DNA from: Mycobacterium kiyosense | Lineage (GTDB): Bacteria > Actinomycetota > Actinomycetes > Mycobacteriales > Mycobacteriaceae | Assembly: GCA_021654635.1 (NCBI GenBank) | Contig: AP025179.1 | Location: 1,488,001-1,552,000 of the forward strand | DNA length: 64,000 nucleotides | Direction: 5' to 3' | Shown: in pieces, positions 3,461-47,564 of the stretch | How the letters are laid out: each line of letters opens with the position of its first letter | Position numbering within the stretch: the first letter of the stretch is position 1 | Program-made: the position numbers and the translations under genes | Notes under the pieces: generated by a model | What the model was told of the DNA's origin: nothing | Seen by the model: the letters and a program-made list of their open reading frames with translations, nothing else | The model's database searches: none

Positions 3461-4903
3461 GTGGACTACGCGAGGATCGACGGACTGCGGGAGCGGCATC
3501 CTGCTTGGCGGCTGCTGCGCGCCGGCAACTCCACGCTGATCCTCGCTTTCTTGGGACAGTTCTTCGTCGAAGGCAACCGAGGCGCGTGCCCGGTAAGCGA
3601 AGTCGCGGCCGCGTTGGACGACCATCTCTACGCGCTGAACGCTGAGATTCCGGCCGAGCGTGGCGAGCAGCGGTTCCCGAAGAACGCTCGTTCCTATTTA
3701 GAGGACTGGGCGGCCACCGAAACTGCTTATCTGCGGCGCTTCTATCCCCCCGGCGACGACGAAGTGCACTATGAGGTCACGCCCGCTTTCGAGAAGGCCT
3801 ACGCCTGGGTCATGTCCCTGAAGGGCCGTTCCTTTGTGGGGACGGAATCCAGGTTGCACACCGTGGTGGACTTGCTTCGGCAGATCGTGCACGGAACCGA
3901 AGTCGAACCCGACGTGCGGCTGGCTGAGCTGCGTCGGCGGCGCGACGAAATCGACGCCGAGATCGCGGCCGTCGAATCTGGCACCTTCACCGTGCTGGAC
4001 GGGACTGCAGTGCGCGATCGCTACCAACAGCTCGCTGCCACCGCCCGGGAGCTGCTGTCGGACTTTCGCGAGGTCGAGGAGAACTTCCGGCTGCTGGACC
4101 GCGCCGCGCGCGAGAAGATCGCGGCCTGGGACGGTTCCAAGGGCGAACTGCTCGCCGACCTGGTCGGCAGCCGTTCCCAGATCACCGGTTCGGACCAGGG
4201 ACGAAGTTTTCAGGCGTTCTACGAATTCCTGCTCTCCGAAGCGCGCCAGGCTGAGCTCGCCGCCCTGATCGGCAAGGTTTCAACCCTCGACATCGTCGAC
4301 GCTGACCAGCGGATTAGCGGCATCCACCAGGACTGGTCTGAAGCTGCTGATCGGGCACAGCGCACGGTCCGACAGATATCCGAACAACTTCGCCGTTTCC
4401 TTGACGACCAGGTCTGGATGGAGAACCGTCGTGTGCTCGACTTGGTCCGGGCGGTCGAGAGCACCGCGCTCGAGGTCCGCGACGACCCGCCAACCTGGGG
4501 ACTCGAAGTTGATCAGCCGGGCATCGACATCACCCTGCCGTTCGAACGCCCGCTTTACCAACCTCCTGCGGAAGTAGCCGTCGAAAGCCACCTTCCGCCG
4601 GAAGCTGAGGAAGTCGACGCGGACCTGCTCTTCACGCAGACCTTTGTCGACCAAGCGCGGCTTGCCGAAGTCATCCGCACTGTTCTGCCGGAGAATTCCT
4701 CGGCGCTGTTGTCCGACGTCGTCGCGATGTACCCGATCGAACAGGGCGCCGCAGAGATCGTCGGTTACCTCGCGCTCAACGACGACGACGTCATGGTCGA
4801 CATGGACGACAGCGATGAAACTCTCTTGGAATACGTCGATCCGGACGATCCGCAGACAACCAAGCGGGCCAGGCTGCCGAAAGTGACGGTACGGCGACGA
4901 TGA
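3461..4903 (+). CDS. jetA: JetA, DUF3375 protein of a type I Wadjet (MksF/EptA-like) system
   Basis: 480 residues, the normal size for DUF3375. The N-terminal half (DGLRERHPAWRLLRAGNSTLILAFL onwards) is winged-helix-like. The middle is long helical or coiled-coil (about 150-360), and the C-terminus is acidic. By family, JetA is the kleisin-like subunit that bridges the JetC SMC-type ATPase dimer and cooperates with JetB. The assembled machine extrudes DNA loops and marks small circular plasmids for cutting by JetD. It is first in the operon jetA-jetB-jetC-jetD, which fixes the assignment. The GTG start has a TANNNT box 6 nt upstream; the stop overlaps the jetB start by 4 nt (ATGA). Confidence 0.9.
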   Translation: MDYARIDGLRERHPAWRLLRAGNSTLILAFLGQFFVEGNRGACPVSEVAAALDDHLYALNAEIPAERGEQRFPKNARSYLEDWAATETAYLRRFYPPGDDEVHYEVTPAFEKAYAWVMSLKGRSFVGTESRLHTVVDLLRQIVHGTEVEPDVRLAELRRRRDEIDAEIAAVESGTFTVLDGTAVRDRYQQLAATARELLSDFREVEENFRLLDRAAREKIAAWDGSKGELLADLVGSRSQITGSDQGRSFQAFYEFLLSEARQAELAALIGKVSTLDIVDADQRISGIHQDWSEAADRAQRTVRQISEQLRRFLDDQVWMENRRVLDLVRAVESTALEVRDDPPTWGLEVDQPGIDITLPFERPLYQPPAEVAVESHLPPEAEEVDADLLFTQTFVDQARLAEVIRTVLPENSSALLSDVVAMYPIEQGAAEIVGYLALNDDDVMVDMDDSDETLLEYVDPDDPQTTKRARLPKVTVRRR

Positions 4904-5475
4904 GCAACGAGCACGCCGTCGCCAGCGCCATCATCCGGTTGATGCAAGGCGTCGTCTACCGCGAATCGGACGAGGACACCTGGCTGACACTGGGACGTCT
5001 GGGTGCCGGTGTGCGAGACCATTTCGCCACCATCGGCGTCGACGTGATCGTCGACGACGTGGAAGGCTATGCCTACCTCCGGTCCCGGTCTGACGAGGAG
5101 GGCGACGAGGCGCTGCCTCGTTTGGTGCGCAGGCGCGCCCTGACTTACAACGTCAGCCTGCTGTTGGTCCTGCTGCGCAAACGGCTCGTCGAGTTCGAGA
5201 CGGCGGGCAGTGACGGAAAGTTGGTCCTCACCTCCGACCAGATCGTCGAGATGTTGCGTCTGTTCCAGGCCGAGTCCAGCAACGATGCCCGGGTCGTGGA
5301 CCAGGCGGAGACGACCATCAAGAAGGCGACCGAACTCGGATTCCTACGACCGTTACGCGGTCAGCGCGACCAGTGGGAGGTGCGGCGGATCCTCAAAGCC
5401 TACGTCGATGCCCAGACCCTGTCGGACTTCGCGGGTAAGTTACGGCAGTACGCGGGTTCGGTAGCCGATGAATGA
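4900..5475 (+). CDS. jetB: JetB, DUF4194 protein of the Wadjet system (MksE-like)
   Basis: 191 residues. DUF4194 features are visible: a short winged-helix domain including RRRALTYNVSLLLVLLRKRL (about residues 77-96) and a second helical part ending in LGFLRPLRG and WEVRRILKAYVD. In the family, JetB (MksE/MukE-like, a kite-type subunit) binds the JetA kleisin. It starts at ATGA overlapping the jetA stop by 4 nt, and its own end overlaps jetC by 8 nt, so the three subunits are translationally coupled. No abnormality is seen in the reading frame. Confidence 0.9.
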   Translation: MSNEHAVASAIIRLMQGVVYRESDEDTWLTLGRLGAGVRDHFATIGVDVIVDDVEGYAYLRSRSDEEGDEALPRLVRRRALTYNVSLLLVLLRKRLVEFETAGSDGKLVLTSDQIVEMLRLFQAESSNDARVVDQAETTIKKATELGFLRPLRGQRDQWEVRRILKAYVDAQTLSDFAGKLRQYAGSVADE

Positions 5476-8400
5476 AACAGCCTCCGCTGCAGCAGGTCTC
5501 GGTGATTCCGGGAGAGCAGGTTTCCGGCTCGAGTACGCCGAACTCCTGAACTGGGGCACCTTCGACAACCAGGTCTGGCGGTTTACGCCCAGGGCGGAGA
5601 CCGCACTGCTCACCGGTGACATCGGCTCCGGCAAGTCGACGATCGTCGACGCGCTCACCACGTTACTGGTGCCGTCTCATAAGGCGGCATACAACAAGGC
5701 CGCCGGCGCTGAGGCCAAGGAACGCACCCTGCGCTCCTATGTCGAAGGCCACTACAAATCCGAACGGAATGAGACCACCGGAAAATCGCGCGCCAAGGGC
5801 CTTCGGGAGAACCGCCGGACCTATTCGGTACTTCTCGGTGTCTTCACCAACCACGGCTACGACGAAACCGTCACCCTTGCGCAGGTCTTCCAGCAGCGCG
5901 AAAGTGCCGGACAGCCGTACCGTTTCTTCGTCACCGCCACCAAGCAACTCACGATTGCGGCGGACTTTGCCGAGTTCGGCTCCGATCTTCGGGATCTGCG
6001 CAGGCGACTGCGCGGTGCCGGGGCAGAGATCTTCGACGAATTCCCAAAGTACGCAACATCGTTGCGCCGTCTGCTTGGAATTCGATCCGAACAGGCACTG
6101 GAACTGTTCCACCAGACCGTTTCGATGAAATCCGTCGGCAACCTCAACGATTTCGTGCGCGACCACATGCTGGAACCCAGCGACGCGACCGAACGCGTGC
6201 GGGACATCATCGCCCACTTCGAGGACTTGACCAAGGCGCACGACGCCGTGCGGCGTGCGCGGGAACAACTCGAGGCGTTCGAGCCTATTGTGGCGACCGC
6301 CGCCAAATACGATGCCGCACTTGGCGAACGCGATGCAATGGAGAGCGAACGATCCGCGGTCCGCGTGTTCATCGCCGAGTTGCGCTCCGGACTGCTGGCG
6401 GACGAGATCGCTCGGCTAGAGGCCGACTGCGCGGACCGGGCAGAACAACTAGCCGCAGCCGAAGCAGGCGAGCTGCGGCTCAAGCATGAACGCGAGTCTC
6501 TCATCGAAGAACGCGCCAAGGCAGGGGGAGATCGCATCGGCGAGCTGCAGCGGCTCGCCCACGAGGCCTGGGCCCAAGCCGAAACACGCCGTCATACCAG
6601 GACATTGTTCGACGATGCCGTGCGCGGCGCCGGGCTCGAGCCGGTCGCCGACCGGGCCGCGCATGAGGCATTGTCCGCCTTGGTCACCGCCGAACGCCCG
6701 CGACGGGCGGACGAGAAACGAGCCCTGGACGCGGCCACCGCCGAGGCGATCGGGATCTCAAAGGACTACCAACGTAAGTGCGACGCGATCGCCGACGAGC
6801 TCGCCAGCCTGGAGCAGCGCACCAGCAACCTGCCGCCAGAGCAGGTCGAACTGCGCGCCGACTTGTGTGCAGCCCTGGGTCTGGGGCCGGAGGATATTCC
6901 TTATGCCGGGGAACTTCTCGACATATTCGACGAGCATGCCGAATGGCGGGGGGCGGCGGAACGAGTGCTGCGTGGATTTGCGCTCTCGCTGCTAGTTCCC
7001 CAACCGCACTACGACGCCGTCACCCGATGGGTCAACGACCGAAGACTCACCTTCCGCGGCCGCGGAGCCAAGTTGGTGTACGAACGGGTTCCACCGCACC
7101 AGGTCCGTCTCCAGCCGTCCCGACATGACGGACTTCTGCTCGCCGACTGCGTCGAAGCCAAGGACGGACCATTCCGCGAATACCTCCTGAACGAGCTCGT
7201 AAAGCGGGCCGATTTCCGTTGCGCAACAACGCTCGAAGAATTTCGCAACCAGCGCCGTGCCGTAACTCGCCAGGGGCAGGTGCGATCCGGCGATCGGCAT
7301 GAGAAGGACGATCGCTACCGCGTCGATGATCCCCGCCGCTGGGTCCTCGGCTGGGCCAACGAACGAAAGATCGCCGCGCTGCGCAACGAGCTCGACGAAC
7401 TGGTGGTCCAGCGGGTGGCGGCGGATGCCGAGGTCGATACTCTCACCGCCCAGCGGGAAGCGCTGCAGGAGAGACTGGACGCCCTGTTGCGAATCGAAGG
7501 GTTCCGTTCGTGGACCGACCTTGACTTTGGCGAGGCCGAAGCGCGCGCGAATGACCATGACGCCGAACGCATCCGGTTGCAGGCCGGCTCGTCGCGACTG
7601 CAGGAGATCACACGCGCGCTCTGGATCGAAATGAGGAATTGGCCTGTGCCCTCGGGGAGTCGATCAAGAAACTCACCGGTGATCTGGCCACCACCGCCGC
7701 AGCGGCGGATCGGGCGAAGAAGGACAAGCAACGTGTTGACGACTTCGTGGCGGCGCAGCCGGAACCCGAGTTGGCAACGGCCCGCGTGTCCTATCCTGCA
7801 CTGAATCAACGCATTGGCAGGTCCCGTCCGACGCGGGCTGCGGATTGTGGTGAGGCGGAGACCACGCTGTCCAGTGCCCTGCATACTCGCATCGAGAAGC
7901 TGACGCGGGAACTAAACGGTCATGCGTTGAATCTGGGTCAGTACATGGCCGAGGTGCTGCGCCGGTGGCCCGAGCTGCGCGCTGACATGGACGCGAATAT
8001 CGAAGCCCGGCGTGAGTTTCTAACATTCCGCGATCGCATAGCGACCGATGATCTTCCGCGCTTCGAAAGCGAATTCAAAGAACAGCTCAATAAGAACGCC
8101 ATCCAGGAGTTGGCCGGGTTCAACAATTGGCTGGGCAGACAGGCATCAGCGATCGATCAGCGCGTCGACCGCATCAACGAGGCGCTCGGCGCGGTGCCCT
8201 ACAACCCGGGTCGCTACATCCGGCTAGAGAAGGAACCCACCACCAATCAAGATGTCGCGCAGTTCCGTTCCGATCTGCGTAACCTCACCGACGACAGCCT
8301 CGCCGTGGACGGTGATCAGTACTCCGAGCAGCGGTTCCTCGACGTCAAGCGCGTCATCGAACGCTTCCGCGGTCGCGACGGCTATTCCGAATCGGACAAG

Positions 8401-8853
8401 TCCTGGACACGACGGGTCACCGATGTGCGCAACTGGTTCGTCTTCTCTGCCTCCGAGCGCGATGCCGAAACCGGTGCGGAATGGGAACACTATAGCGATT
8501 CGGACGGCAAGTCCGGTGGTCAGAAAGAAAAGCTCGCGTACACGATCCTGGCGGCGTCGCTGGCTTACCAGTTCGGGCTGGAATGGGGTGTCGCGCGATC
8601 GCGCGACTTCCGCTTCGCGGTCATCGACGAGGCATTCGGGCGTGGCTCGGACGTCTCGACGCGCTACGCTCTGGAACTCTTCGCTACGCTGGGACTGCAA
8701 CTGCTCATCGTGACGCCTTTGCAGAAGGTCCACGTCATCGAGCCATACGTCAAAGCGATTGGTTTCGTTGACAATCCAACCGGAACGTTCTCTCGGCTGC
8801 AGACGATGACAATCGAAGAGTACCGGTCCCGGCGCGACGGGCGGCGACCGTGA
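5468..8853 (+). CDS. jetC: JetC, SMC/MukB-like ATPase of the Wadjet system (MksB/EptC-like), frameshifted near 7621
   Basis: Restored length about 1,128 residues. Walker A is LLTGDIGSGKST (about 46-57). Long coiled coils run about 270-470 and 640-760, with a hinge-like segment around 470-620. The ABC signature region is SDGKSGGQKEKL (about 1014-1025) and Walker B is FAVIDEAFG. By family this is the loop-extruding ATPase; its M. smegmatis homologue EptC restricts plasmids. The frame is broken: the first part stays in one frame to about 7621, then continues one frame back from LDRNEELACALGESI. A single missing base, for instance in GCT-CTG read as GCTGCTG, would restore ALLDRNEEL. The break is not in a homopolymer, so a real inactivating mutation is possible. 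As written, the first product ends at 7804. Confidence 0.85.
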
Positions 8854-10028
8854 AGCCCGCCTGGACCACATCGGCGGGCATCGCGGTCCGAGTCAGGCGT
8901 CGGTGGGACGATGGGTCCCTGCTACGTGGTTATGCCAACGGCGATCCTTTCGAGCCGATCGAAGTGCCGCTGCGCGGACCGAAGCCGTCGCAGGTCGGCG
9001 ACGACTTAGCCGCTGCGCGACAGTGGGTGGCCGACCTCCAAGCAAGCGCTCGGGACGGCGAACGATTTACCCTGCAGTGGCAAGCTATTGGCGGCAGGCG
9101 AATTGGCCGCAACCAATTGCCTTCCCGTGCAATGATATCCACATTCGAGCAAGCCGTGGCGCTGTTGGGGGTGACGGCGCTGGTCCGCAAATTCGACGAG
9201 CTGCTGGTTCTGGCAGATCAACATCGGCGGGTTCGACAGTGGATCGTCGACCATCCGCATCGTGCACTCGAACTGGGGCCGGAGATGCCGCGGCTGATCG
9301 CCGCGTACGTGTGGCTCGACATTAATCGCCAATCGCAAAAATATTTGCGGGAGATCAGTGCGCCCGGGGTGGACACCAAGTTCGCCGAACGGCACCGGCC
9401 GGTTTTGGCGGCCATGCTGGGCGTCTCCTCGACGGCGGCGGGCTTTGTCGCCGGCCTCGGCTTGAGGTCGAAGCCAGGCTTAGTAAGGCTACGGCCCTCG
9501 CCTTCTTTGGGTCTGCCCGGGCCGACTCTTTCTGAACTGGGCTTGCGTCCTGAAGAGTTGGCTCGACTGGATGTCGTGCCACGGCAGGCGGTGATCGTCG
9601 AGAACGAGATCAGCTATCTGTCCTTCGACGTCCCCGAAGACGGTGTTGTGATCTGGGGAAGGGGCTTCGACGTCGACAGCGTGGGCCGTTCGCCGTGGCT
9701 CGCTGGCGCCGATGTCCTCTACTGGGGCGACATCGACACGCACGGATTCGCGATTCTTGATCGGCTGAGGGCATGGTTGCCGCACGTCCGGTCGGTGCTG
9801 ATGGACCGAGAGACACTGCTCGCCCATCGCGATCGTTGGGTGGCTGAGGACCGCCCGGCCCGGTCGCTTCTGACCCGGCTCACGCCGCCGGAGCAGGAGC
9901 TCTACTGCGACCTTGTTACCGATGGGCTTGGCGAACGGGTGCGCTTGGAACAGGAGCGAATTGACTGGCAGTGGGTGGTGCAGCGGGCGTCGGCAGCCGA
10001 ACCGAGCCGAGAGCAGTCGCTGACGTGA
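8850..10028 (+). CDS. jetD: JetD, Toprim nuclease of the Wadjet system (DUF3322-DUF2220, MksG-like)
   Basis: 392 residues. The N-terminal half (about 1-190) fits DUF3322 and the C-terminal half fits DUF2220, a Toprim/topoVI-A-like domain. Metal-binding acidic residues are visible: the Glu in VIVENEISYLSF (about 251) and the pair in YWGDIDTHGF (about 292). By family, JetD forms a dimer that cleaves plasmid DNA trapped by the JetABC motor. The GTG start overlaps the jetC stop by 4 nt (GTGA). All catalytic acidic positions appear intact, so a frameshifted jetC would leave a nuclease without its motor. Confidence 0.9.
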   Translation: MKPAWTTSAGIAVRVRRRWDDGSLLRGYANGDPFEPIEVPLRGPKPSQVGDDLAAARQWVADLQASARDGERFTLQWQAIGGRRIGRNQLPSRAMISTFEQAVALLGVTALVRKFDELLVLADQHRRVRQWIVDHPHRALELGPEMPRLIAAYVWLDINRQSQKYLREISAPGVDTKFAERHRPVLAAMLGVSSTAAGFVAGLGLRSKPGLVRLRPSPSLGLPGPTLSELGLRPEELARLDVVPRQAVIVENEISYLSFDVPEDGVVIWGRGFDVDSVGRSPWLAGADVLYWGDIDTHGFAILDRLRAWLPHVRSVLMDRETLLAHRDRWVAEDRPARSLLTRLTPPEQELYCDLVTDGLGERVRLEQERIDWQWVVQRASAAEPSREQSLT

Positions 10029-10359: not shown

Positions 10360-11805
10360 GTGAAACGACTCACCGGCTTGGACGCCTTGACGTTGTACAG
10401 CGAGACCCCGGAAATCCACATGCACACGCTGAAAATCGGCGTACTGGACATCTCGGGTTTCAGCCAGGAGTTCAGCTTCGAGCTGTTCCGGCAGATCGCC
10501 TACCCGCGCCTGATGGCGTTGGAACCGCTGCGCTATCAACTGGTCGACATCCCGATGAAGCTGCACCACCCGATGTGGCGGACCAACGACGACATCGACC
10601 TCGACTACCATCTGCGTCACACCCGGGTGGCCGCGCCCGGCGGACGACGCGAACTCGACCAGCTGATCGGTCACATCGCCAGTACCCCGCTGGATCGCTC
10701 CCGGCCGCTGTGGGAGATGTACGTCGCCGAGGGCCTGGCCGACGGTCGCATCGCCATCATCCACAAGGTCCACCACGTATTGGCCGACGGAGTGGCGTCG
10801 GCCAACCAGATGGCACTGGCGATGGCGCTCGAGCACCCGGACCCGAGGCGCCGCGCCAAAGCGCCCGACCTGCCGGGCACCCGCGCCGAGCTGCTCCGGG
10901 CCGCCGCACGCGACCACGTCGGCCTGATCCGCAAGCTGCCCCGCCTGCTCACCGAGACGACCACCGGTGTCCGGCGGGTCCGCCGCCGCGCCAAGGAACG
11001 CGGCGCGCACCCCGAGCTTGCGCGCAACTTCGCACCGCCCCCATGCTTCATCAATCACCGGGTGACCCCGGGTCGTCTGTTCGCCACCGCGCCGCTGCCG
11101 CTGGCGGACGTCAAGCAGACGGCCAAGCACCTCGGGGTCACGCTCAACGATGTGGTGCTGGCCATGGTCGCCGGCGCGCTGCGTCGACTGCTGCTGCGAT
11201 ACGACGGTGAAGCCGGCGAGCCCTTGATCGCCGGCGTACCGGTAAGTTACAACACCTCCCCAGATCGGTTGGCGGGCAACGAGTTCTCCTATATGACGCC
11301 GTCGCTGCCGGTACACATCGACGACCCGATCGAGCGGGTGAAGCTGACTTCGCTGGCCACCAAGATCGCCAAAGAGAACCATCAGTTGCTGGGCCCTACG
11401 GTGCTGCCGGCGTGGATGTCGTATTTGCCGCCGGCGTTGGCGCCGCGCTTGTTCCGCGCCCAGGCCAGGCGAGTCGAATCAGCCAGCGTGATGAATCTGA
11501 CCGTCTCCAACGTGCCCGGTCCGCGGGTTCGGGGCGACGTCGAGGGCGCCACGGTCAACGAGATCTACTCCGTCGGGCCGATCGTCGCGGGCAGCGGCAT
11601 GAACGTCACGGTGTGGAGTTACGTCGATCAACTGGCCATCTCGGTGCTCACCGACGATGTGACGCTGACCGACCCGCACGAGGCCACCGAGGCGATGATC
11701 GATGCGTTCATCGAAATACGCAGTGCTGCAGGGCTTTCCAGTGAATTGACACCGGTGGGCGCCGTCCTTCCGCTGGTAACCGGGATCAAAGGAGGATTTT
11801 CATGA
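10360..11805 (+). CDS. WS/DGAT family O-acyltransferase (wax ester synthase/diacylglycerol acyltransferase)
   Basis: 481 residues, typical for the mycobacterial Tgs family. The catalytic HHxxxDG motif is present as HHVLADG at about residues 137-143, and the C-terminal block has the conserved NVPGP motif (about 384). These enzymes use acyl-CoA to esterify diacylglycerol or fatty alcohols to form storage triacylglycerol or wax, at the inner face of the membrane. Residues 195-225 are basic. The GTG start gives MKRLTGLDAL, the normal N-terminus of the family. The last 4 nt (ATGA) overlap the next gene, so the two are coupled. Confidence 0.9.
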   Translation: MKRLTGLDALTLYSETPEIHMHTLKIGVLDISGFSQEFSFELFRQIAYPRLMALEPLRYQLVDIPMKLHHPMWRTNDDIDLDYHLRHTRVAAPGGRRELDQLIGHIASTPLDRSRPLWEMYVAEGLADGRIAIIHKVHHVLADGVASANQMALAMALEHPDPRRRAKAPDLPGTRAELLRAAARDHVGLIRKLPRLLTETTTGVRRVRRRAKERGAHPELARNFAPPPCFINHRVTPGRLFATAPLPLADVKQTAKHLGVTLNDVVLAMVAGALRRLLLRYDGEAGEPLIAGVPVSYNTSPDRLAGNEFSYMTPSLPVHIDDPIERVKLTSLATKIAKENHQLLGPTVLPAWMSYLPPALAPRLFRAQARRVESASVMNLTVSNVPGPRVRGDVEGATVNEIYSVGPIVAGSGMNVTVWSYVDQLAISVLTDDVTLTDPHEATEAMIDAFIEIRSAAGLSSELTPVGAVLPLVTGIKGGFS

Positions 11806-45082: not shown

Positions 45083-45317
45083 CGCGGCGGGTGCCACCGC
45101 ACACCGGCGACACGCCGGCCGCGATGACTAAGTAGGTGCGCCGACAACGTTTTCCATGACCGTCGCGCGTAAACCTGTGGATCTGCTGAGCGCCAGAAAA
45201 AGCCTGTCAATCGACCTACCCGAGAATCGGCATTCCATTAGAGTTCGGTGTGCAGGTCGTGTGGCTCGGGAGCTGCTCACGGGAGGCGGCGTCATCCGGC
45301 TTGGAGGGAGCACAGCC

Positions 45318-47564
45318 ATGAGCTTTTTCGGATTGCCGCCGGAAATCAATTCACTGCAGATGTTCACCGGTGCGGGTTCCGAGCCGATGCTCGCGGCCGC
45401 GACCGCCTGGTCGGGTTTGGCCGACGAATTGGCAACGGCTGCAGAGTCGTTCGCGGGTGTCACGTCGGGGTTGACCGGTCAGGCTTGGCAGGGACCCGCA
45501 GCGGCGGCCATGACGGCCGCGGCCGCACCCTACACAAGCTGGCTGAGTTCGGCCGCCGCCCACGCCGCCGGTGCGGCAGCATCGGCCAACGCGGTGGTGA
45601 GTGCGTTCGAGTCCGCCCAAGCCGCCACCATCCATCCTCTCGCGGTGGCGGCCAACCGAAATGCGTTCGTGCAGTTGGTTGTATCGAATCTGTTCGGGCA
45701 GAATGCGCCCGCGATCGCGGCCGCCGAGAGCATCTACGAAGAGTTCTGGGCCGCCGATGTGGCGGCGCTGGTCGGCTACCACGGTGAGGCATCGGCGGCC
45801 GCTTCCGCCTTGGTGCCTTGGTTCAATGCCCTCGAGAGCCTGCCGAATCAGCTCGCCGGCGCGGCCACGGCCGCCATCCCCGCCAGCAACACCGGAATCG
45901 GCAACATCGGCTCATGGAACCTGGGCATCGGCAACATCGGCAACCTGAACCTCGGAAACGGCAACACCGGTGACGTGAACCTCGGTGCCGGCAACACCGG
46001 CAGCTACAACTTCGGCAGCGGCAACCTCGGCAACCTCAACCTGGGTCTGGGCAACTACGGCACCCAGAACTTCGGTCTAGGCAACTTCGGCAGCAGCAAC
46101 ATCGGTTTCGGCAACGGAAGCAGCTATTACAGCATCGACGTCAAGGCCATCGGGAACGTCGGCTTCGGCAATCTGGGCAACTACAACTTCGGCATCGGGA
46201 ACGCCGGCAACTCCAACTTCGGCCTGGGTAACCTCGGCAACAGCAATCTCGGGTTCGGCAACCTGGGCAACAACAACTTCGGCTTCGGAAACCTCGGCAG
46301 CAACGACATCGGGATCGGCCTCAACGGCAGCAATCAGATCGGCATCGGCGGGCTGAACTCGCTCACCAGCGGATGGAACCTCGGGTTCGGCAACAACGGC
46401 ACCGGTAACTTCGGCTTCGGCAACGCCGGCAACTACAACGTCGGTTTCGGCAACACCGGCAACAACGACTTCGGCATCGGGCTGACCGGCAACAACCAGT
46501 TCGGGTTCGGCGGGCTGAACTCGGGCAGCGGCAATGTCGGCTTCGGAAACTCGGGCAGCAACAACGTCGGCTTCTTCAACACCGGTAGCGGAAACGTCGG
46601 AATCTTCAACTCCGGCAACGGAAGCTGGGGCATCTTCAACTCGGGCAGCATCGACACCGGCATCGGTAACACCGGCATGCTGGACACCGGACTGTGGAAT
46701 GCGGGTACCACCAACTCCGGGTCGTTCAACGCCGGCTCAATCAACATGGGCTTGGGCAACGCTGGCGCCAACAACATGGGGCTGATGAACCCGGGCACCT
46801 ACAATCTCGGCATCCTCAACGCCGGCACGCTGAACGTCGGTTTGGTGAACGCCGGTATCGGCGATATGGGCAGCTTCAACTCGGGCGTGGACAACTGGGG
46901 CTTCGCCAACGCCGGCGGATTCAACCTGGGCGCCTTCAACTCCGGTGGTCCCGAGGTGCGGGACGCCAGCGGATACTCGCTGGGCTATGGCAACGTCGGA
47001 TTCGCCAACACCGGCGCGACGAACACCGGCTTCGGCAACTCGGGCAACACCAACACCGGCTTCTGGAACTCCGGCAACCTGGTCACGGGCCTGGGCAACG
47101 CGTTCAACGTCACCCCGGCGGGGGCGACGAGCTCGGGCTTCGGCAACACCGGCACCGGCGATTCCGGCTTCCTCAACTCCGGCAACGGCAACGCCGGCTA
47201 TGGGAACGCGGCCAACTACAGCATGGGCTTCATGAACTCCCAAGGCCAATCACAGGTGGGCTTTTACAACTCGGGCGCGGGCAGCAATGTGGGAGCCTGG
47301 AACTCGGGTAACGGTGGCAACGTCGGCTTCAACAACTCCGGCGCCGGCGACAACATCGGCTTCTTCAACTCGAACACCGACTCCGGCAATCCCGACGTCG
47401 GCTTCACCAATTCGGGTAACGGCAGCGCCGGGATCTCCAACTCCGGGACCGCCAACGCGGGTGTGCACAACACCGGGACGGGCAGCTCGGGGATCAGGAA
47501 TTCGGGTACCAACAGCAGCGGTGGTTTCAACCAGGGCGACGGACAGTCAGGGTTCTTCCGCTAA
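45318..47564 (+). CDS. PPE family protein, PPE-MPTR subgroup (PPE53 position)
   Basis: 748 residues from the ATG at 45318 ([19 protein letters not shown] at 7-9), preceded by GGAGGGAG. A longer in-frame extension to 45156 is not typical of PPE proteins. The PPE domain is about 1-175 and contains [12 protein letters not shown] and [21 protein letters not shown] single MPTR array follows to the end ([14 protein letters not shown]). It is convergent with nuoN, 14 bp apart, as PPE53 is in M. tuberculosis. Its PPE domain is closely similar to that of the gene upstream, so the pair arose by tandem duplication. Confidence 0.9.

What the first reader, a model, noticed from the sequence alone, without database searches (positions are those of the whole stretch)
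3461..10028. Complete type I Wadjet (JetABCD/EptABCD-like) operon in a mycobacterium, with a frameshift in the motor subunit
Seen: four overlapping genes with DUF3375, DUF4194, SMC-like ATPase and DUF3322/DUF2220 Toprim features in the canonical order. jetC changes frame near 7621 outside any homopolymer; one missing base would repair it. Known: Wadjet/MksBEFG systems destroy small circular plasmids, and loss of the M. smegmatis EptC (JetC) makes the strain plasmid-permissive. Inference: if the shift is real, this isolate has a disarmed defence with an intact nuclease; if not, it is an active plasmid barrier.
Basis: partly seen in the sequence, partly recalled or inferred. Interest (0 to 1): 0.72.

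Follow-up and report, generated by a model that had tools for sequence, protein, structure and literature searches.

The report
Ordinary plasmid-defence operon, probable assembly error
This is a known kind of bacterial anti-plasmid machine (type I Wadjet) in a mycobacterium; the break in its motor gene is more likely an error of this genome assembly, in which similar breaks disrupt many ordinary genes, than proof that the defence is disarmed.

Summary
Window 3461-10028 carries jetA-jetB-jetC-jetD in that order. Every product, and both jetC pieces, match type I Wadjet profiles, and catalytic motifs are present. JetC changes frame between about 7613 and 7657. The break is not ancestral or programmed: 85 of 89 distinct assessable related loci read straight through it.

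The 'disarmed defence' reading is weak, because frame breaks are common in the parts of this assembly that I tested. Against syntenic genes of four relatives, the window region shows 9 frame breaks (54 genes/63 kb comparable with the best-covered relative). The relatives, tested among themselves, give 0, 0, 0 and 3. A second region shows 14 breaks in 118 kb, uvrB among them. At that rate a 6.6-kb operon is expected to hold about 0.8 breaks (P of at least one 0.57). The 23 breaks cluster at homopolymers, with only one in-frame stop, as expected of indel errors. Against this, the jetC site is not in a homopolymer, so a recent real mutation stays possible (about 20%).

A side result is more interesting: this genome has a second, divergent JetABC locus without jetD. 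Of 111 genus genomes (198 searched) with a JetC match, 81 have no JetD_C match.

The parts
3461..4903 (+). jetA (mksF-like kleisin), DUF3375, 480 aa, GTG start
   Evidence: JetA1 1.3e-193; PF11855 475.5 bits
4900..5475 (+). jetB (mksE-like KITE subunit), DUF4194/MksE, 191 aa
   Evidence: (JetB1 4.4e-112)
5468..7621 (+). jetC (mksB-like SMC motor), N-terminal piece with Walker A at residue 50 (hinge and first coiled-coil arm expected here from the SMC layout, by recall); the ORF itself runs on out of frame to 7804
   Evidence: JetC1 model 12-712; AAA_29
7613..7657 (+). interval in which the jetC reading frame changes; no homopolymer longer than 3 within 30 bases
7657..8853 (+). jetC, C-terminal piece in another frame: SGGQ signature and Walker B (VIDEAF); its ORF is listed from TTG at 7639
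   Evidence: JetC1 model 724-1120; SbcC_Walker_B
8850..10028 (+). jetD (mksG-like Toprim nuclease), DUF3322 + JetD_C, 392 aa; Toprim glutamate E251 and DxD (WGDIDT) present

Best explanation
The locus is a complete type I Wadjet (JetABCD, MksFEBG) operon of the lineage that carries jetD. By analogy with studied members, JetABC would extrude loops on DNA and, when both motors meet after running round a small circle, trigger JetD to cut it. That mechanism is taken from the literature, not shown here. The frame break in jetC is most likely one of the many indel errors of this assembly, so the cell most likely has an intact jetC.
For: All four proteins match type I Wadjet families, and JetC and JetD match solved JetC, JetD and MksG chains by sequence. 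Walker A, signature, Walker B and Toprim residues are present; query glutamate E251 aligns to the residue mutated in the solved JetD(E248A). Frame-break census against syntenic genes, window region: 9 frameshift sites (6 supported by at least two relatives; 8 seen with G202 alone) and 1 in-frame stop; 54 genes/63 kb comparable with G202, the best-covered relative. Same test among relatives: G202 0, G006 0, G229 0, G107 3 frameshifts plus 1 stop (none supported by two). UvrB region: 14 frameshifts, 0 stops in 90 genes/118 kb; reverse comparison 3 in 93 genes/112 kb, two of them in genes broken in this genome and one independent (51% identity). Pooled rate 12.7 per 100 kb gives 0.83 expected in 6,568 bases, P(at least one) 0.57; difference from controls p = 4e-4. 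Homology-free HMM: 39 frame-break-like events per 400 kb against 8 per 200 kb in each of two controls, p = 0.001. 13 of 23 break sites lie within 30 bases of a homopolymer of 5 or more, background 7.9%, p = 3e-9. The uvrB open frame is 529 codons here and at least 715 in every other genome whose match is listed. A complex I antiporter domain stops at model position 157 of 294 in the ORF that meets the breaks near 49.6-49.8 kb.
Against: The jetC site has no homopolymer over 3, whereas 13 of 23 other breaks have one of 5 or more; 4 of the 23 also have at most 3. The second JetABC locus of this genome carries an in-frame TAG in its jetC, a lesion type seen once in the census, as well as a split jetA, so some real decay of such systems is possible. 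One control genome (G107) also shows 3 breaks. No reads were available.
Confidence: 0.75

Rival explanations
1. The frame break is real and recent: this isolate lost JetC function, keeps an idle JetD, and would be more permissive to small circular plasmids, like M. smegmatis mc2 155 with its EptC lesion.
For: The site is outside homopolymers. The other JetABC locus also shows lesions. Loss of such systems in a laboratory strain has precedent (PMC10123090 and PMC10586767, passages). 5 of 97 assessable loci (4 of 89 distinct) are not continuous in the jetC stretch tested, and the M. genavense jetC lies in pieces.
Against: About 0.8 breaks are expected in the operon from the assembly-wide rate alone. 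The rest of jetC and jetD is open, and the C piece is 80-87% identical in most close mycobacterial loci, 77% in one, so any inactivation would have to be recent.
Confidence: 0.2
2. The locus is an old pseudogene cluster.
For: One broken gene.
Against: The other three genes and both jetC pieces are open with no further stops, and catalytic motifs are kept.
Confidence: 0.03
3. JetC is made by a programmed frameshift or as two separate polypeptides.
For: The C piece has an in-frame TTG at 7639.
Against: 92 of 97 assessable homologous loci run through the junction in one frame, 37 of them at 70% identity or more; without duplicates 85 of 89 and 31. An SMC head needs both pieces (established knowledge).
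Confidence: 0.02

Closest known systems
Type I Wadjet (JetABCD) / MksBEFG, PADLOC models PDLC00457, 00468, 00512, 00530
   Same: Four genes, order A-B-C-D, full-length profile matches for A, B and D and for C in two pieces, Walker and Toprim motifs; same order in the close mycobacterial loci where all four were found.
   Different: JetC is split by a frame change in this assembly.
M. smegmatis EptABCD
   Same: Same kind of system, by the literature, in a mycobacterium, with loss of EptC in mc2 155 (PMC10123090, PMC10586767, passages read).
   Different: Orthology not tested. In the genus most JetC matches to this query are only about 30% identical, so there are at least two lineages.
JetD-less MksBEF
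   Same: The second locus of this genome (G000:C1:3358044-3363489) has JetA, B and C of a different lineage (PDLC00459, 00472, 00514) and no JetD.
   Different: The window operon has JetD and belongs to the other lineage.

Membership tests
Type I Wadjet (JetABCD) | DUF3375 JetA, DUF4194 JetB, MukB-like JetC and DUF3322/JetD_C JetD in one operon | tested here: met
Type I Wadjet (JetABCD) | SMC ATPase motifs Walker A, signature, Walker B | tested here: met
   on two separately read pieces
Type I Wadjet (JetABCD) | Toprim catalytic glutamate and DxD in JetD | tested here: met
Type I Wadjet (JetABCD) | JetC encoded as one uninterrupted SMC protein | tested here: not met
   two pieces in different frames in this assembly; continuous in 92 of 97 assessable related loci (85 of 89 distinct); probably an assembly error
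Type I Wadjet (JetABCD) | ATP-dependent cleavage of circular DNA, plasmid restriction | not testable with these tools
   no experiment
M. smegmatis EptABCD orthologue | closest relative is EptC rather than the other mycobacterial lineage | not tested
   no record titled M. smegmatis among the results

The most novel reading that the evidence does not exclude
Mycobacteria carry two type I Wadjet lineages. The commoner one has shed JetD and works as a nuclease-free loop-extruding condensin, or borrows a nuclease: the JetD of the rarer complete lineage in genomes such as this one that hold both, or another one (an endonuclease/exonuclease/phosphatase-family gene follows jetC in 3 of 10 loci compared). 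Many 'Wadjet' calls in mycobacteria would then not be plasmid-cutting systems of the known kind.
Probability: 0.3. Interest if true: 0.5.

Novelty: new member of a known kind. Interest (0 to 1): 0.2.

Why it matters
It is a caution: gene breaks read from this assembly, including one in a defence motor, should not be taken as biology without reads. If the break were real the strain would be a natural plasmid-permissive mycobacterium. The by-product, that 81 of 111 JetC-matching genus genomes show no JetD_C match, bears on how Wadjet counts in mycobacteria are interpreted.

Tried and rejected
Programmed frameshifting and old-pseudogene readings were rejected.

Earlier versions of the frame-break census gave noisy results and are not used for rates. 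One search used too small a reference set (75 kb covered; 12 events here, 0 in controls of 10 and 8 kb). One search counted spurious antisense ORFs (44 frameshifts and 37 stops here, 21 and 75 in the reverse direction). One search lost second pieces (2 here, 0 reverse). One search counted mirror images (25 here, 11 reverse). One search lacked start trimming: 15-18 frameshifts per 100 kb here but also 0-11 in the control comparisons. One search added start trimming and edge rules after those results were seen, so its thresholds were not fixed in advance. Its 9 window-region sites are a union over four relatives, while the 63 kb is the coverage by G202 alone; with G202 alone the count is 8. The HMM has a background of 4 events per 100 kb in both controls. 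The homopolymer background is 20,000 random places, coding or not.

A synteny search with the window gene at 45156 hit a large repetitive family and was useless. No tRNA was found in the window. GC content shows no sharp island edge. Structure prediction was not run; sequence matches to solved structures sufficed.

Papers: PMC10123090, PMC10586767, PMC11316565, PMC10482375 and PMC12287153 were seen as passages only; the others only as search listings.
Full report
WHAT IS THERE. The window is G000:C1:1488001-1552000 of a 6.35-Mb single-contig genome. Several 'same genus' genomes share identical DNA with named records (M. hubeiense, M. helveticum, M. genavense, Mycolicibacterium parafortuitum and others), so it is a mycobacterium in the wide sense. 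On the plus strand lie jetA 3461-4903, jetB 4900-5475, jetC from 5468 and jetD 8850-10028. PADLOC assigns all four, and both jetC pieces, to type I Wadjet families, and Pfam agrees. By sequence, the jetC and jetD products match solved JetC, JetD and MksG chains. Walker A (N piece), SGGQ signature and Walker B (C piece), and the Toprim glutamate and DxD of JetD are present.

THE FRAME BREAK. The N piece covers positions 12-712 and the C piece 724-1120 of the 1123-position JetC model, in different frames. The switch lies between about 7613 and 7657. No homopolymer longer than 3 occurs within 30 bases. Of 100 related loci examined, 97 had both pieces; 92 run through the junction in one frame without a stop, 37 of them at 70% identity or more. 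Five do not (one with differing frames, four with a stop somewhere in the tested stretch), and three lacked a piece. Eight of the loci duplicate another one (identical 300-base core); without them the counts are 85 of 89, and 31 at 70% or more. The test covers the junction, not the whole gene: the M. genavense locus passes although its jetC lies in pieces. The break is thus not ancestral or programmed.

IS THE BREAK BIOLOGY? The second JetABC locus of this genome (L004) raised doubt, because its neighbour uvrB was also split. A codon-usage HMM found 39 frame-break-like events in 400 kb sampled evenly from this genome, 8 in the 64-kb window, and 8 per 200 kb in each of two control genomes. A stricter homology test compared syntenic genes. 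In the window region (124 kb with flanks) this genome shows 9 frameshift sites and 1 stop; 54 genes/63 kb were comparable with G202, 46/50 with G107, 36/43 with G006 and 32/33 with G229. Six of the nine sites are supported by at least two relatives; eight are seen with G202 alone. The relatives, tested among themselves, show 0 (G202), 0 (G006), 0 (G229) and 3 frameshifts plus 1 stop (G107), none supported by two. In the uvrB region (213 kb) this genome shows 14 frameshifts and no stop in 90 genes/118 kb. The reverse comparison shows 3 in 93 genes/112 kb: two lie in genes broken in this genome, as expected when a broken ORF serves as query, and one, at 51% identity, is independent. The jetC break itself is not in these counts: no jetA or jetD match was found in the syntenic stretches of the four relatives.

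WHAT THE RATE IMPLIES. The pooled rate of 12.7 frameshifts per 100 kb predicts 0.83 in the 6,568-base operon, probability of at least one 0.57; the window-region and uvrB-region rates give 0.94 and 0.78. The excess over controls has p = 4e-4 (9 of 12 events against an exposure share of 0.25). Thirteen of 23 sites are within 30 bases of a run of five or more identical bases, against 7.9% of random places (p = 3e-9). Frameshifts outnumber stops 23 to 1. A complex I antiporter domain (PF00361) ends at position 157 of 294 in the ORF that meets the breaks near window 49.6-49.8 kb. Indels at homopolymers in conserved genes, almost without nonsense mutations, are what an under-polished long-read assembly gives; that attribution to a sequencing method is inference. 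The jetC site is in the minority that lacks a long run (4 of 23 other sites have at most 3), so it is not of the commonest error type. I put the artefact reading at about 0.75 and a real recent inactivation at about 0.2.

HOW IT WORKS. Not shown here. From the review PMC10586767 (passages read): JetABC is an SMC motor, JetD a Toprim nuclease, and circular DNA below roughly 50-100 kb is cut in an ATP-dependent, sequence-independent way, probably after complete loop extrusion. A JetC cut at about residue 717 of about 1120 would lack the C-terminal half of the ATPase head (signature and Walker B), so if the break were real the motor should be dead and JetD probably idle (inference).

CONTEXT. To the right, the gene at 10360 and several after it are collinear with G202 and G006. 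To the left, 30 kb of this genome gave no DNA match to the stretches of G202, G006 and G107 that I held, which reach only about 11 to 18 kb in that direction. So the operon lies at the edge of a block not found at that place in these relatives. Composition shows no sharp boundary and no tRNA was found in the window.

A SECOND LINEAGE. The genome also holds JetA, JetB and JetC of another type I lineage (PADLOC PDLC00459, 00472, 00514) at C1:3358044-3363489, between a protein kinase gene (PF00069) and uvrB, two genes that adjoin in G006; four G202 stretches around uvrB also have no match to it. Its jetA is split and its jetC contains an in-frame TAG. It has no jetD, and the only JetD match found in the genome is the window's. 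Over 198 genus genomes, 111 have a JetC match and all 111 also have a JetA match, but only 30 have JetD_C, all among the 111; 81 therefore show JetA and JetC without JetD_C (set counts). DUF3322, the other JetD domain, matches 35 genomes, 8 of them only weakly (E between 1e-4 and 8e-4), and five of those 8 (G014, G021, G051, G094, G152) are among the 81. Draft genomes and divergent JetD could lower the figure.

ITS NEIGHBOURS. Ten JetD-less JetABC loci were compared: this genome's and nine others, three of these from genomes that have a JetD elsewhere. No gene follows jetC in all ten. The commonest follower, in three loci, is an endonuclease/exonuclease/phosphatase-family protein (PF03372); those three also share other neighbours, so this may be plain synteny. 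Other followers tested are a luciferase-like monooxygenase, a PIF1-like helicase, a TetR regulator and a phytase-like protein. None of the four followers scanned with PADLOC matched. Loss of JetD giving MksBEF is already proposed for Pseudomonas (PMC10586767). My listings (15 of 39, 12 of 13 and 8 of 8 papers shown) held no title that describes this for mycobacteria; that is not proof of absence. A survey that reports Wadjet in 99.6% (662/665) of M. kansasii complex genomes assigned systems from PADLOC (PMC11316565, passages); whether those have JetD was not checked.

VERDICT. A sound observation of an ordinary type I Wadjet operon, with a frame break that most likely belongs to the assembly.

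Noticed in passing
L004 4044-9489 (G000:C1:3358044-3363489): Second, divergent type I JetABC locus without jetD, between a protein kinase gene and uvrB; jetA is split and jetC has an in-frame TAG. The two flanking genes adjoin in G006, and G202 stretches around uvrB have no match to it.
   Followed up: partly
198 genus genomes: 81 of 111 genomes with JetA and JetC matches show no JetD_C match: the commoner mycobacterial lineage appears to lack the nuclease.
   Followed up: partly
L231 10660-11472, L234 5014-5820, L238 9019-10158: An endonuclease/exonuclease/phosphatase-family gene (PF03372) directly follows jetC in 3 of 10 JetD-less loci; the three share other neighbours too.
   Followed up: partly
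window 15830, 16170, 20382, 27051, 39480, 49570, 49821: Further frame breaks in conserved genes (a signalling protein near 16 kb, a complex I antiporter-like gene near 49.7 kb and others), taken as assembly indels.
   Followed up: yes
L004 about 2443 (G000:C1:3356443): uvrB, a core repair gene, is split in this assembly (open frame 529 codons, at least 715 in every other listed genome).
   Followed up: yes
window 45156-47564: Member of a very repetitive family (up to 141 matches per genome); PE/PE_PGRS type by recall, no profile run.
   Followed up: no
L024 and L093 (the same DNA, M. genavense): jetC matches in three pieces with a TAG inside one frame: possible true decay of this operon in another species.
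   Followed up: no
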